In this document: positions 4,761 to 10,105 of the stretch, piece by piece | Numbering within the stretch: the stretch's first letter is position 1 | Layout: each line of letters begins with the position of its first letter | Assembly (NCBI GenBank): GCA_029248105.1 | Contig: JAQWJZ010000037.1 | Coordinates: forward strand, 1-64,000 | From: Flavobacteriales bacterium | GTDB taxonomy: Bacteria > Bacteroidota > Bacteroidia > Flavobacteriales > UBA7312 | DNA length: 64,000 bases | Reading direction: 5' to 3' | The notes under the pieces: generated by a model | What the model was told of the DNA's origin: nothing | Databases searched by the model: none | The model's input: only the letters and a program-made list of their open reading frames with translations | Translations under genes and position numbers: made by a program

Positions 4761-6098
4761 ATGTTTTATCGAATTCTATGGTTGTTTGTTCTTACTCCTT
4801 TCATTTCTTTAGCTCAAGATTGTATAGATGAACAAGCTGTTAATCCTGATTGTTTTTGTATTCAATCCTATGAACCTGTATGCGGTTGTGACGGAGAATT
4901 ATATGGCAATTCGTGTGAAGCAACGGAGTGTGCTGGAGTTACTTCTTATGTTTCGGCATACGACGAAAATGGAAATTTGATAGACTGTTCAACGGTAGCT
5001 ACTGCAAATTCTATTTGTGATTCTATAAGTGTAGAAATAGAATCTTTTGACTTTTTGACACAAGATGAAGAGGTAACTTTGGCTATAAACATGTCTACTT
5101 TCTTCACATCATCTGTGTTTTTTGACTACGCAGGTTTTGTCCTTGTAAATGCTGATGGAGATGCTGTTGCACAAGAAGGCATGGATGCTGGTAATGTATA
5201 TGGTTTTGGTTCTAACTACAGCGATACAAGAACATTATATTTCGATGAGTTTTTTAGCTTCCCTTTCGAAGGTACTTTATTGTTGTTTGAAGGTTTTTTT
5301 GCTGGAAACCCTGAATTAGCATGCTCTTTTGATATTAGCTTTGGACTTGATGGTGCTGGAGTATCTTTAGAAGGGCAATATTATTTGGAAGAAGAATACG
5401 ATTATTTGGAGTTCACTTCTGACTCTATATTTATTTATGACTTTGAAGACAATATGGAATGTTATGAATTTATTTCACTCGGTTATATAGCATCGGATTC
5501 TGTCTTAGTGATTTCGGATGAAGAAGAGGAAGAACTGATGATGATAAATTACTACCTAAATGGTGATAACATTAATCTCTCTATGGATGGTGATTATATG
5601 GAACTTGTCTACACCTTGTTTGAGTCTTCAAAATGGGAGGAATGTGACGATGATTCAATTTCAGATTGTATGATTTCTAATGTTTATGCTGAAGCAGGAG
5701 AGTGCGATAGCTTAGGTTATTTTATGGTTGATATAGAATTTGATGTTATGAGTCCATCCGCATACACCTTTACAATTCAGGGTAATGGCACTAATTACGG
5801 TTCTTTTGAATATGGTCAAGTGTTTTATCAGGTGGGTCCACTTTTAGCTGACGGAGTTACCCCTTATGAATTTGCAATTACCGATAATGAAAATCCGGAA
5901 TGTTCTGACTTTTACGATTTAGGAACGGTAAGTTGTGAAGGGGCTACAGGAATTACAGATTTACAAACACAAGACAGACGACTTTTGTTTATAAAAAACA
6001 TACTGGGAGAAACGGTTAATAAATTAGAGCCTAATAACCCTTATATTTATTTTTATGATGATGGTAGTTTTGAAAAGAGAATTATCTTTGAAAAATAA
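4761..6098 (+). CDS. secreted protein with N-terminal Kazal-like domain and variant C-terminal sorting signal
   Basis: 445 residues. Signal peptide residues 1-18 (ISLAQ). Residues about 20-77 form a Kazal-type protease-inhibitor-like module (EPVCGCDGELYGNSCEA) with paired cysteines. The middle is an acidic beta-rich region of unknown fold (EEEYDYLEF, DEEEEEL). The C-terminus (LFIKNILGETVNKLEPNN, then IYFYDDGSFEKRIIFEK) resembles the short end-signal seen on many flavobacterial secreted proteins rather than the standard YPNP type A domain. It is probably exported by the T9SS and may inhibit serine proteases at the surface; the latter is inferred from the module only. The next gene follows within 25 nt. 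Confidence 0.7.
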   Translation: MFYRILWLFVLTPFISLAQDCIDEQAVNPDCFCIQSYEPVCGCDGELYGNSCEATECAGVTSYVSAYDENGNLIDCSTVATANSICDSISVEIESFDFLTQDEEVTLAINMSTFFTSSVFFDYAGFVLVNADGDAVAQEGMDAGNVYGFGSNYSDTRTLYFDEFFSFPFEGTLLLFEGFFAGNPELACSFDISFGLDGAGVSLEGQYYLEEEYDYLEFTSDSIFIYDFEDNMECYEFISLGYIASDSVLVISDEEEEELMMINYYLNGDNINLSMDGDYMELVYTLFESSKWEECDDDSISDCMISNVYAEAGECDSLGYFMVDIEFDVMSPSAYTFTIQGNGTNYGSFEYGQVFYQVGPLLADGVTPYEFAITDNENPECSDFYDLGTVSCEGATGITDLQTQDRRLLFIKNILGETVNKLEPNNPYIYFYDDGSFEKRIIFEK

Positions 6099-6120
6099 AT
6101 TATCATTTAAAGTTATACCA

Positions 6121-6885
6121 TTGTTAAAATATAAGCATTTCATTAAGTCAGACGATGCCGATTGGATAACTTTTATTCATGGGGCAGGAGGCAGTAGTAC
6201 CATATGGCACAAGCAAGTCAAAGTACTCAAAGAACATTTTAATTTATTATTAATTGATTTAAGAGGGCATGGTATGTCTAACGATATGCCTGTTCAGAGT
6301 GACTATTCTTTGGATATTGTTGTTGAAGAGGTAGTTGAAGTTATTCAACACCTAAAGATCAAAAAATCACATTTTATTGGTGTCTCTTTAGGGACTATAA
6401 TAATCACTAAAATTTCAGATTTATATCCTAGTCTCGTAAATAAAGTAATATTAAGCGGAGCTATTACTAGCTTTTCAACACGAACACTTTTTCTTCTTAG
6501 AACGGCTCAAGCCATTAAAGGATTTACGCCTAACATTATATTATATCGTTTGTTTGCGCTTATTATAATGCCCAGTAAAGAGCACAGAGTATCAAGAAGA
6601 GTGTTTATCAATGAAGCTAAAAAAATTAAAAATAGAGCTTTCCAGAATTGGTTAAGGTTGTTGCCTGAAATTAAACATACTATTGATGATATTTCTAAAC
6701 TAAAATTGTCAAAACCTACCTTATTTATTTCGGGCATAGAAGATTATCTCTTTGTTCGTCAAATTGAAGAATACGTTAAAGACAAGTCCAATTGTTTTTT
6801 AGAAAAAGTAAATAATTCTGGTCATATTGTAAACATTGATCAACACCAAGTTTTTAATACATTTGCATTAAAATTCTTAAAATAA
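6121..6885 (+). CDS. alpha/beta hydrolase
   Basis: About 254 residues from a TTG start at 6121. Family features: oxyanion loop FIHGAGGSSTIW, LLIDLRGHGMS, nucleophile elbow GVSLGT (Ser), acid residue in FISGIEDYLF (Asp), and catalytic His in NNSGHIVNID. Substrate unknown; the family includes esterases, lipases and haloperoxidase-like enzymes. An ATG cluster at 6055 would extend the protein by 22 residues and overlap the upstream gene by 44 nt. The TTG start is preferred because homologous proteins usually begin just before this strand. It lies 2 nt before the rhodanese-thioredoxin lipoprotein gene, so the two are probably co-transcribed. Confidence 0.82.
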   Translation: MLKYKHFIKSDDADWITFIHGAGGSSTIWHKQVKVLKEHFNLLLIDLRGHGMSNDMPVQSDYSLDIVVEEVVEVIQHLKIKKSHFIGVSLGTIIITKISDLYPSLVNKVILSGAITSFSTRTLFLLRTAQAIKGFTPNIILYRLFALIIMPSKEHRVSRRVFINEAKKIKNRAFQNWLRLLPEIKHTIDDISKLKLSKPTLFISGIEDYLFVRQIEEYVKDKSNCFLEKVNNSGHIVNIDQHQVFNTFALKFLK

Positions 6886-6887
6886 TT

Positions 6888-7601
6888 ATGAAAAACTTCA
6901 TTGCTCTAGTTGGTTCAATCTTACTTATTGCTTGTTCCTCAAATTCACAAACGTTTACCAATTTATCCCCAAAAGAGTTCAAATCTGCATTTGAAAAAGA
7001 GAATGCCATTCTTTTAGATGTGCGTACTCCTCAAGAAATTAATGGCGGTATGATAGAAAATGCCAGTACTATTGATTTTTACGATGCAGATTTTTCCAAA
7101 AAAATTGCAAAGATTCAAAAAGATAAAACGGTATATGTCTATTGTAAGAGTGGAGGTAGGAGCTCCAAAGCTGCAAAAATGTTATTAGAGTCAGGACAAA
7201 CCAAGGTGGTTAATTTGAAAGGTGGGATAATGGCATGGAATACAAATCGTATGCCACTGACCAAATCCACGTCTAAAAAAGACCATTCTATGGAGGAGTT
7301 GTCAATTTCTGATTTTGATAATATGTTATCAAAAAATAGTTTGGTCTTAGCTGATTTTCATACCCTTTGGTGTGTGCCTTGCCGAAAGATGTCGCCCATT
7401 GTAGATGAACTTAAAGTTGAATACGAAAGTTCAGCAGAAATTCTTAGAATAGATATGGATAAAAGTGAACTTTTAGCAGATTCTTATAATATCAAAGCCG
7501 TGCCTACTTTTGTGCTTTTCAAAGATTCTAAAGAAATCTGGAGACATACGGGTCTTATCAGTAAAGAAGAATTAGAGGAGATATTAAAATCTAATATTTA
7601 A
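6888..7601 (+). CDS. rhodanese-thioredoxin fusion lipoprotein
   Basis: 237 residues. Lipobox LLIAC at residues 12-16 gives a periplasm-facing lipoprotein. Residues about 28-122 form a rhodanese domain with the active-site loop YCKSGGRSS, which holds the persulfide cysteine, and the signature LLDVRTPQEI. Residues about 138-235 are a thioredoxin domain with active site WCVPC and the cis-proline motif VPTF. The fusion suggests sulfur relay or repair of protein disulfides and persulfides in the periplasm; partners are not evident. Probably co-transcribed with the hydrolase. It ends 5 nt before the convergent 3' end of tmRNA. Confidence 0.85.
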   Translation: MKNFIALVGSILLIACSSNSQTFTNLSPKEFKSAFEKENAILLDVRTPQEINGGMIENASTIDFYDADFSKKIAKIQKDKTVYVYCKSGGRSSKAAKMLLESGQTKVVNLKGGIMAWNTNRMPLTKSTSKKDHSMEELSISDFDNMLSKNSLVLADFHTLWCVPCRKMSPIVDELKVEYESSAEILRIDMDKSELLADSYNIKAVPTFVLFKDSKEIWRHTGLISKEELEEILKSNI

Positions 7602-7606
7602 ATTAG

Positions 7607-7973
7607 TGGAGCTGGTGGGAATCGAACCCACGTCCAAACAAGGAACTCAAGCGCTTTCTACATGTTTATTGTTTTTTGATTGTCGGGAAGGGTAAGGAAA
7701 AACACAACCATACTCCAACCTTATCTTCTTTAGTTTCGCTTTTTAGTCGAAGCCCTAAATCGCTAGCTCAATCTTTTCTGATGCTTCAATAGAACGAAAG
7801 CGTTGAGCCATCTTTCATTCGGAAGCAAAGGCGTCCTAAATACTATATCTAGGCAGCCATAGCGTAGTTATACTCGCCATTTAAAAGTGTGTGAATTGAT
7901 ATTTACGAGCCAACAAACAACGCTCGACATGCTTACGGTTAACTTCATCTTGTAGTCAAAACCAGTCAGCCCC
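7607..7973 (-). ncRNA. ssrA: transfer-messenger RNA (tmRNA)
   Basis: The minus strand begins GGGGCTGACTGG and ends with CAGCTCC plus discriminator A, forming the 7-bp tRNA-like acceptor stem. The 3' part has a standard T-arm (GTGGGTTCGATTCCCAC). CCA is not encoded. The resume codon GGC at 7878 opens a 9-residue tag GEYNYAMAA, closed by TAG at 7849-7851. The Bacteroidota form of the tag is GENNYALAA, so the fit is good. The product rescues stalled ribosomes with SmpB and marks the nascent chain for degradation. Confidence 0.95.
7849..7878 (-). other. tmRNA tag-peptide reading frame (GEYNYAMAA)
   Basis: Nine sense codons (GGC GAG TAT AAC TAC GCT ATG GCT GCC) then TAG. The tag ends in AMAA where most bacteria have ALAA. 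Codon assignment read directly from the sequence. Confidence 0.85.
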
Positions 7974-8266
7974 AATAAAAAAAGAACAGCTGCAAAGTTA
8001 CACTATTTATAACTTTCATTTACACAGAATTATTAGTAGTCAAAAAGGAGTTTTTTTGATAAAGCATACATGTAATCTCGATTAAGACCAATTTATTACT
8101 GATAAATGATGGATTTTTTCCGTTAAACGAGTGTGAAAATGTTAAGTTTTTTGATAGTGCAATATATTAGGTTTGTATATGTTTAAGCACATTAGCATAG
8201 CAAGGGATTTAGCATAGAGGTTGTCCTAGAGCTAAAGTAGTGATTATGTAAAACTTAAAGTGGGGA
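7974..8266. other. intergenic region between tmRNA and the chimeric gene
   Basis: About 290 nt of AT-rich sequence. It must hold the tmRNA promoter (minus strand) and that of the chimeric gene (plus strand). Apart from the TAGGTTTG box at 8168, I see no conserved feature and no remnant of the missing N-terminal half of Fic. Confidence 0.5.
8168..8175 (+). promoter_or_regulatory. possible -7 promoter element for the chimeric gene
   Basis: TAGGTTTG, a match to TAnnTTTG, 91 nt before the ATG at 8267. This long leader is unusual here. A TTTG at 8150-8153 is spaced only 14 nt away, shorter than the consensus. Confidence 0.3.
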
Positions 8267-8839
8267 ATGAAATTTGTCTTAAGTATATTTTTTCTGTTTT
8301 TGAGTGTAGTTCTTTTTGCGCAGATACCGGGTATTCCTTACCAAGCGGTTTTGCTAAGTCAAGAAAATGCTCAAGAGTTACCGGGTTACGATTCTGAGTA
8401 CGCCAATTTACTAACCAATTCTATAGTTTCTGTGCGTTTTTCGATTTATGATGGTAATGGCCGTACTGCTCGATTAAGTATGAACCTCATTTTAATGTCT
8501 TTTGGTTTTCCGCCTGCTATCATTCTACGAAATGATAGGAAAAAATATTATGCTGCCTTAAATGCCGCTAATAAGGGTAATTACCAAAAGCTAATGCTTC
8601 TTATGGTGCAAGCTGTAGAGCGTACTTTAAATATTTATATTAATGCTTTGCCTGGTTCCGAAGATGGCTATGATGAGATTTCAAATATCGTTAAAGAGGA
8701 TGATGTTCCTTATGGGCAGGAGTATATTAGTTTACTGGCTCGGCAGGGTAAAATAGATGCTTATAAAGAAGGAAAAAATTGGTTAACCTCTAAAAAAGCC
8801 ATTCATAATTATATCATAACAAGAAAGCGTAATCGCTAA
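8267..8839 (+). CDS. chimera: secreted-protein N-terminus fused to the C-terminal half of a Fic protein
   Basis: 190 residues in one frame. Residues 1-65 have a signal peptide (ending FAQ) followed by IPGIPYQAVLL and SIVSVRFSIYDGNG, the typical start of secreted Bacteroidota fibre-like proteins. From D62 the protein is the second half of a Fic-domain protein: DGNGRTARLSMNLILMSFGF, DRKKYYAALNAANKGNY, and a C-terminal helix-turn-helix-like tail (EYISLLARQGKIDAYKEG). In Fic the motif is HxFx(D/E)GNGR. Here the His position is Phe, so AMP transfer should be lost. The fusion point sits in the shared word DGNG. Most likely a deletion scar or decaying gene, but the frame is intact. Read as a possible pseudogene. 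Confidence 0.7.
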   Translation: MKFVLSIFFLFLSVVLFAQIPGIPYQAVLLSQENAQELPGYDSEYANLLTNSIVSVRFSIYDGNGRTARLSMNLILMSFGFPPAIILRNDRKKYYAALNAANKGNYQKLMLLMVQAVERTLNIYINALPGSEDGYDEISNIVKEDDVPYGQEYISLLARQGKIDAYKEGKNWLTSKKAIHNYIITRKRNR

Positions 8840-8893: not shown

Positions 8894-10105
8894 ATGACTA
8901 AAACCAAGATTGGCATATTAAGAGAGGGTAAAACACCACCTGATAAAAGAGTTCCTTTGACTCCTACACAATGTCAGGTGCTAATGAATCAATATTCTAA
9001 TTTAGATTTGGTGGTTCAAAAAAGTCCTATTCGCTGTTTTGATGATAGTGACTATTCAGCTTTAGGTATTCCATTAGTTGATGATGTTTCGGACTGTGAC
9101 ATACTTATGGGAGTAAAAGAGGTTGTGAAAACAGAACTTCTTAATGATAAAATGTATTTTTATTTTTCTCATACGATAAAATCACAACTATATAATCTAG
9201 AGTTGCTTCAAAAAATGGTTGAGAAAAATATCTCAATGGTTGATTATGAAACGTTAAAGTATGCCAATGGAAGACGTGTTCTTGGTTTTGGTAGATTTGC
9301 TGGTGTTGTGGGTTGTTACAATGGTTTTTTGGCTTATGGTGAAAGAACTCAAAAATACCATTTAAAACCTGCTAATAGTTGTGAGGATAGGGTAGAGCTT
9401 GAAGAGGAGTTAAAAAAGATAGACTTGCCTAACGTTAAAATCATTGTTTCTGGAAATGGTAGAGTAGGGCAAGGTGCCTTAGAAATTATACATACTTTAG
9501 GTATAAGAGAAGTAAGCAAAGAAGAATTTACGACTCAAAGTTTTGATGAAGCTGTTTATGTTCATCTAGATTTTTACGACTATAATGTGCGAATTGATGG
9601 TTCGGACTTTTCTAGTTCAGATTTCTTTTCGAATCCAGAATTATTCAAATCTTCGTTTATTGATTTTGCTTCTTGTGCTGATATTTTTATTGCTGGTCAT
9701 TATTATGGTGCGGGTTCTCCTTATCTGTTTACTAGAGAGGATGCTAAGTCTCCTGATTTTAAAATTCGTACAATTGCTGATATTTCTTGCGATATTGATG
9801 GTCCTGTGGCTTCTACCATTCGCCCTTCAACTATAGAAAACCCTATTTATGGGTATAATCCCCATACCGAATCTGAAGATATTTTTAATAAAGAAGATGT
9901 CATCACAGTAATGGCAGTAGACAATTTGCCTTGTGAATTACCGAAAGACGCTTCTGAAGATTTTGGTAACGAATTAATAACACATATTTTTCCTTGCTTA
10001 CTTTCAGAGGATAGCGATAATATTATCGATAAAGCTACCATTTGTAAAAATGGTGATTTGAATGCTCCTTATGAATATTTAAGAGATTACTTAAACGGCT
10101 ATTAG
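8894..10105 (+). CDS. saccharopine dehydrogenase/alanine dehydrogenase-like NAD(P)-dependent oxidoreductase
   Basis: 403 residues, cytosolic. The N-terminus (IGILREGKTPPDKRVPLTP) is the alanine dehydrogenase/transhydrogenase-type substrate domain. VLGFGRFAGVVGCYNGF is typical of the lysine-forming saccharopine dehydrogenase branch, and KIIVSGNGRVGQGALEII is the Rossmann nucleotide-binding loop. TIADISCDIDGPVASTIRPS matches the catalytic-domain end. It probably interconverts an amino acid and a 2-oxo acid with NAD(H); the exact substrate is not clear in Bacteroidota. Its stop codon interlocks with that of rpe on the other strand (TTAG). Confidence 0.8.
   Translation: MTKTKIGILREGKTPPDKRVPLTPTQCQVLMNQYSNLDLVVQKSPIRCFDDSDYSALGIPLVDDVSDCDILMGVKEVVKTELLNDKMYFYFSHTIKSQLYNLELLQKMVEKNISMVDYETLKYANGRRVLGFGRFAGVVGCYNGFLAYGERTQKYHLKPANSCEDRVELEEELKKIDLPNVKIIVSGNGRVGQGALEIIHTLGIREVSKEEFTTQSFDEAVYVHLDFYDYNVRIDGSDFSSSDFFSNPELFKSSFIDFASCADIFIAGHYYGAGSPYLFTREDAKSPDFKIRTIADISCDIDGPVASTIRPSTIENPIYGYNPHTESEDIFNKEDVITVMAVDNLPCELPKDASEDFGNELITHIFPCLLSEDSDNIIDKATICKNGDLNAPYEYLRDYLNGY

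What the first reader, a model, noticed from the sequence alone, without database searches (positions are those of the whole stretch)
8267..8839. Chimeric gene: secreted-protein start joined to half a Fic gene at a shared DGNG word
Seen: residues 1-65 read as the start of a secreted fibre-like protein (signal peptide, IPYQAV, VSVRFSIYDGNG). Residues from 62 read as the second half of a Fic protein, beginning exactly at DGNGRTAR. Both parent families carry DGNG at this place, and the DNA word GATGGTAATGG (8450-8460) would serve as micro-homology. The catalytic His of the Fic motif is Phe here. A simple explanation is a recombination between a secreted-protein gene and a fic gene that fused them in frame. 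If expressed, the Fic-derived half, including its HTH-like tail, would be exported, an unusual fate for a normally cytosolic domain.
Basis: partly seen in the sequence, partly recalled or inferred. Interest (0 to 1): 0.75.

Follow-up and report, generated by a model that had tools for sequence, protein, structure and literature searches.

The report
Deletion-born fibre–half-Fic fusion gene
In this flavobacterial genome a deletion of about 4–5 kb, visible by comparison with sister genomes, welded the start of a secreted surface-fibre gene to the back half of a Fic enzyme gene, leaving an in-frame but almost certainly enzymatically dead fusion: a clear snapshot of how gene decay can make chimeric proteins, not a new kind of system.

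Summary
The chimera is real and its origin can be shown. In a same-genus genome (G003) the interval between tmRNA and an alanine-dehydrogenase-family gene holds fibre gene (364 aa) – 261 aa gene – 837 aa gene – intact fic (321 aa), all on one strand; a second genus (G006) has fibre (1255 aa) – fic (317 aa) there. The window has the same flanks but only the 190-aa ORF: its first ~61 codons match the fibre start (65% aa identity), its last ~129 the fic end (88%). A deletion equivalent to 4,982 bp (G003) or 4,270 bp (G006) explains it. The missing parts are absent from this 99% complete genome. Relatives' fibre genes read DING/DLNG, not DGNG, so the proposed 11-bp microhomology is not supported; TGAT plus a nearby AATGG is. 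The catalytic His was deleted with the fic 5' half, not mutated. The same cassette has decayed differently in G004, G009, G002 and G005, so it is dispensable. The Fic half shows no decay (0 of 50 invariant residues changed): the fusion is recent or still constrained. Most likely a young, non-catalytic relic; expression and export are untested.

The parts
8267..8839 (+). Chimeric ORF, 190 aa: fibre-gene start fused in frame to fic end
8267..8323 (+). Signal-peptide-like start (MKFVLSIFFLFLSVVLFAQ), inherited from the fibre parent
   Evidence: read from sequence; aligns with the starts of the fibre genes of G003, G006, G007
8267..8452 (+). Fibre-derived part (codons 1 to about 61/62, PGIPYQAVLLSQ...QELPGYDSEYANLL...VSVRFSIYD)
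   Evidence: DNA alignment to the G003 fibre gene ends at window 8452
8444..8461 (+). Junction zone; the deletion breakpoint lies here (ATTTATGATGGTAATGGC)
   Evidence: fibre alignment ends 8452, fic alignment starts 8445; parental DNA compared
8450..8836 (+). Fic-derived part (DGNGRTAR... to the end), lacking the HPF catalytic part and everything upstream, including the inhibitory-motif-like SNSIEG of the parent
   Evidence: 88% identical to residues 192-321 of G003 Fic; 0 of 50 invariant positions changed
8678..8821 (+). C-terminal winged-helix-like tail of the Fic protein (helix, helix, two-strand wing, helix)
   Evidence: AlphaFold model, block pLDDT about 73-85 here against 44-67 in the first 80 residues; weak excisionase-type match TIGR01764, E 0.08-0.15
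8168..8175 (+). TAGGTTTG, a possible Bacteroidota -7 box (TAnnTTTG) upstream of the fibre start, aligned with the same word in G003
   Evidence: weak: no -33 element at the usual spacing, not present at this place in G006
7606..7973 (-). tmRNA gene (ssrA), left flank, in the same place in all relatives where the locus is held
6888..7601 (+). rhodanese-thioredoxin-like protein gene, left flank, conserved neighbour
   Evidence: domain names read from the sequence
8894..10105 (+). AlaDh/PNT-family dehydrogenase gene, right flank, conserved neighbour
   Evidence: Pfam of the G003 orthologue

Best explanation
The ORF is the scar of one deletion. The ancestor of this lineage carried, between tmRNA and the dehydrogenase gene, a secreted S74-type fibre gene (or gene set) followed on the same strand by a full-length Fic gene. 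One deletion of about 4-5 kb ran from codon ~61-62 of the fibre gene to the DGNGR codons of fic, probably by illegitimate recombination or replication slippage at a short partial match (TGAT...AATGG), and happened to keep the frame (chance about 1 in 3). The product has the fibre gene's start, probably its promoter, and a signal peptide, followed by the last 129 residues of Fic. It cannot be an AMP-transferase because the HPF histidine and the N-terminal half of the Fic fold are gone. If made, it would probably enter the Sec pathway; it has no fibre body, so most likely it is inert or degraded and on its way to loss, as the same cassette already is in sister genomes. Shown: two-parent origin, order, strand, deletion of the middle, loss of the catalytic motif, repeated decay in relatives. 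Inferred: mechanism at the breakpoint, recency, export, lack of function.
For: Intact parents in the same interval with the same flanks in G003 and G006; DNA alignments that end and start at the same point, window 8445-8452; deletion sizes 4,982 and 4,270 bp; no fic 5' half, fibre body or 261/837-aa genes left, apart from one unrelated fibre gene at G000:C38 with different neighbours; no second copy of either half; no other fused relative in 398 genomes of the order or in the genome collection. Dispensability: fic 3' remnant with a stop in G004, frameshifted fibre 5' remnant in G009, 119 and 97 bp left in G002 and G005; the protein tree separates these cases, so several losses are independent. 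Recency: omega of the Fic half on this branch 0.07, like the background 0.08, and omega = 1 rejected (2 delta lnL 8.3); 0 of 50 invariant positions changed. The model of the whole protein is of low confidence (mean pLDDT 66, pTM 0.43), with only the winged-helix tail fairly confident.
Against: The assembly is a draft (46 contigs) and no reads or second genome of the species could be checked, so the junction rests on one assembly. Full conservation of the Fic half can also be read as continued constraint rather than recency. The fibre half is too short (62 codons) for the selection test to say anything.
Confidence: 0.9

Rival explanations
1. The fusion is a maintained new gene: an exported, non-catalytic protein whose conserved winged-helix tail or nucleotide-loop remnant has been co-opted in the envelope, or a fusion kept because it captured a promoter.
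For: Open frame over 190 codons, Fic half under normal constraint on this branch and 0 of 50 invariant positions changed. Deletion-born in-frame fusions can be adaptive in bacteria (PMC4395868: fusions of diguanylate cyclase genes to upstream genes, one with four intervening genes deleted).
Against: Unique to one genome; catalytic His and N-terminal half of the Fic fold missing; the same cassette is being lost in relatives; a DNA-binding-type tail has no evident use outside the cytoplasm; most of the branch measured may predate the fusion.
Confidence: 0.12
2. Assembly or binning artefact: the fibre and fic genes are intact in the organism and the contig skips the part between them.
For: Draft genome; no reads available.
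Against: Both sides carry this species' own diverged sequence and its own flanks; the parents share only about 4-9 bp at the junction, far below usual assembly word lengths (general knowledge); the supposedly skipped parts are absent from a 99.2% complete assembly; relatives show real losses here.
Confidence: 0.06
3. An established family of signal peptide-half-Fic proteins, so not a fusion of this lineage.
For: None found.
Against: Fic relatives in which the motif was read carry it intact with the ORF continuing upstream; none of 398 genomes of the order has the fused form.
Confidence: 0.01

Closest known systems
Fic (AMP-transferase) proteins with an N-terminal inhibitory motif; closest solved structures by sequence are human FICD (e.g. 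6i7g, 4u04), then the Fic protein 3cuc
   Same: Residues 62-190 are the C-terminal part of such a protein, with DGNGRTAR and all invariant C-terminal residues
   Different: The HPF catalytic part, the inhibitory motif (read as SNSIEG in the G003 parent) and the whole N-terminal half are missing; a signal peptide has been added
Bacteroidota secreted fibre proteins with a C-terminal Peptidase_S74 (chaperone of endosialidase) domain, as in G006 (PF13884)
   Same: First ~61 codons: signal peptide and the PGIPYQAV...QELPGYD...VSVRFSI motif
   Different: Fibre body and S74 end are deleted; the fibre start itself matches no Pfam family
Deletion-generated in-frame gene fusions in bacteria (e.g. the diguanylate cyclase fusions in Pseudomonas fluorescens, PMC4395868)
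   Same: Deletion between neighbouring genes, in one reported case removing four genes, joins the start of one to the end of another
   Different: Those were selected in the laboratory and change phenotype; here the enzyme half is cut through its catalytic motif and no phenotype is known

Membership tests
Fic/DOC enzyme (PF02661) | Curated Pfam score reached | tested here: not met
   16.1 bits against a cut-off of 24; only profile positions 78-93 of 93 matched. The G003 parent scores 78.1
Fic/DOC enzyme (PF02661) | HPFx(D/E)GNGRxxR with the catalytic His | tested here: not met
   reads VRFSIYDGNGRTAR; His, Pro and Phe of the motif absent
Fic/DOC enzyme (PF02661) | Complete Fic helical core upstream of the motif | tested here: not met
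   residues equivalent to 1-191 of the G003 Fic are missing and nowhere else in the genome
Fic/DOC enzyme (PF02661) | Conserved C-terminal part | tested here: met
   0 of 50 invariant positions changed
Bacteroidota S74-type secreted fibre | Signal peptide and conserved N-terminal motif | tested here: met
   65% identity to the G003 fibre start, alignment
Bacteroidota S74-type secreted fibre | Fibre body and C-terminal S74 domain | tested here: not met
   ORF ends in the Fic tail; no S74 match
Deletion-generated gene fusion | Both parents adjacent, same strand and same order in relatives, with the middle missing here | tested here: met
Deletion-generated gene fusion | Fusion confirmed by reads or a second strain | not testable with these tools
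   no reads; one genome per species in the collections; junction DNA absent from viral contigs
Deletion-generated gene fusion | Fusion transcript and protein | not testable with these tools
   no expression data

The most novel reading that the evidence does not exclude
A newly born, maintained bacterial gene in which the nucleotide-loop remnant and winged-helix tail of a Fic enzyme have been redirected to the cell envelope by a fibre-gene signal peptide and kept by selection.
Probability: 0.07. Interest if true: 0.7.

Novelty: new member of a known kind. Interest (0 to 1): 0.36.

Why it matters
It is a clean natural case in which both parents, their order, the deleted middle and alternative outcomes of decay at the same locus can be seen in sister genomes. 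It shows how repeated loss of a dispensable cassette can by chance yield an in-frame chimera with a new predicted destination. If it were shown to be expressed and kept, it would catch gene birth by deletion at an early stage. As a function it is probably nothing, and annotation pipelines could mislabel it as a Fic protein.

Tried and rejected
11-bp DGNG microhomology: not supported, since fibre relatives read DING/DLNG. Diverged full Fic gene (first half evolved beyond recognition): rejected by the synteny and by the fibre match of residues 1-65. Established family: no fused relative. Parents elsewhere in the genome: none; the one fibre hit, C38:76158-76730, has different neighbours. Junction DNA in viral contigs: none. 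NCBIfam matches to XopAC and SoFic are far below their cut-offs and reflect the Fic C-terminal part. Promoter search: only a weak TAnnTTTG match shared with G003. Selection test on the fibre half: too short to decide; neutral branch lengths are near saturation, so no dates were estimated. A first regular expression for the Fic motif was wrong and was redone.

Full report
OBSERVATION. ORF 8267-8839 (+) encodes the 190-aa protein described, without stops. Pfam sees only the last 16 positions of the Fic profile, below the cut-off. The two halves have separate, strong relatives.

THE PARENTS. A search of 60 related genomes found, in the same-genus genome G003, an intact fic gene and a fibre gene about 5 kb upstream on the same strand, and the same in G006 of another genus. 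Reading both loci shows full synteny. G003: rhodanese-thioredoxin gene, tmRNA, fibre 364 aa, 261 aa, 837 aa, fic 321 aa, dehydrogenase, rpe, rpoD-like, pnp. G006: the same flanks with fibre 1255 aa (C-terminal Peptidase_S74) and fic 317 aa. Window: the same flanks with only the 190-aa ORF between tmRNA (7606-7973) and the dehydrogenase (8894-10105). Residues 1-65 are 65% identical to the G003 fibre start, residues 61-190 are 88% identical to the G003 Fic end.

THE JUNCTION. DNA alignment to the G003 fibre gene ends at window 8452 and alignment to the G003 fic gene starts at 8445. The deletion is equivalent to 4,982 bp in G003 and 4,270 bp in G006. In G006 the fic DNA GATGGTAATGGCCGTACTGCTCG is identical to the window from 8450 on, while the fibre genes read GATATCAACGG (G003), GATTTAAATGG (G006) and GATGAAAAAGG (G009). 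The shared word between parents is therefore TGAT plus a nearby AATGG, and not 11 bp, unless this lineage's own lost fibre gene happened to read DGNG. The 'Phe for His' is explained: position 58 belongs to the fibre half.

IS IT AN ARTEFACT? The genome is 1.74 Mb in 46 contigs, 99.2% complete. The fic 5' half is absent from it; of 1395 residues of fibre body and neighbouring genes only one partial match exists, a separate gene at C38:76158-76730 with other neighbours. Each half is present once. An assembler is unlikely to jump at so short a match. Reads were not available, so this is strong but indirect.

A LOCUS THAT KEEPS BREAKING. In G004 (sister of G003) only a 49-residue fic 3' remnant with a TAG is left; in G009 (genus of G006) only a fibre 5' remnant with a frameshift; in G002 and G005 119 and 97 bp. 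On a tree of concatenated flanking proteins, (G000,(G002,(G003,G004)),((G005,G006),G009)), with G005 placed on few residues, the intact cassette in G003 and G006 at the same site means it was probably present in their common ancestor and was lost several times independently. In a genome of another family fic is split in two frames (G016, L068:6387-7361). So the cassette is dispensable here, and one of three partial remnants happens to be in frame, about what chance would give.

AGE AND CONSTRAINT. With a codon model written for this purpose, the Fic half of the window has omega 0.07 on its own branch against 0.08 in the background; omega = 1 on that branch is rejected (2 delta lnL 8.3). None of 50 positions invariant among 19 Fic relatives is changed. 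Either the fusion is recent or it is still under constraint; the first is simpler given the decay in relatives. The fibre half gives no verdict.

WHAT IT WOULD DO. The product has a signal-peptide-like start and no HPF, no inhibitory motif and no N-terminal Fic core. The AlphaFold model is poor overall (mean pLDDT 66) with a fairly confident winged-helix-like tail. AMP-transferase activity is excluded by the missing residues on established knowledge of Fic enzymes (motif HPFx[D/E]GN[G/K]R, abstract of PMC7479194). Export is an inference. The likeliest fate is an inert or degraded protein.

COMPARISON. No fused relative was found in 398 genomes of the order, in the genome collection or, as exact junction DNA, in viral contigs; Fic relatives in which the motif was read carry it intact. 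The process is known: deletions fusing neighbouring genes in frame, in one case removing four genes, were selected in Pseudomonas fluorescens (PMC4395868).

VERDICT. Observation confirmed; interpretation supported in its core and corrected on the microhomology and on the 'His to Phe' point. New instance of a known kind of event; function probably none.

Noticed in passing
window 6888-7601: A lipoprotein-like start followed by rhodanese-like and thioredoxin-like (WCVPC) parts in one 237-aa protein, next to tmRNA; found at this place in G003, G004, G006 and G009, but not in G002.
   Followed up: partly
window 4761-6098: Secreted protein with a Kazal-like cysteine pattern (CIQSYEPVCGCDGELYGNSCEA); its 3' end overlaps the listed start of the next ORF (6055-6885).
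   Followed up: no
G000:C38:76158-76730 (L083:8057-8959, -): Another fibre-like gene of the same genome, 57% identical over 210 residues to the 837-aa gene next to fic in G003, at a different locus near a contig end.
   Followed up: partly
L068:6387-7361 (G016): A fic gene of the same subfamily split into two frames (126 and 187 aa), another case of decay.
   Followed up: no
L064:7882-11649 against L063:8149-12651: One 1255-aa fibre gene in G006 stands where G003 has three shorter genes (364, 261, 837 aa), so the fibre part of the cassette is itself rearranged between genera.
   Followed up: partly
L047, L049: Contigs filed under Actinomyces viscosus and Candidatus Kuenenia MAGs encode Bacteroidota-type Fic proteins 60-74% identical to this one: probably mis-binned or mis-named MAGs.
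   Followed up: no
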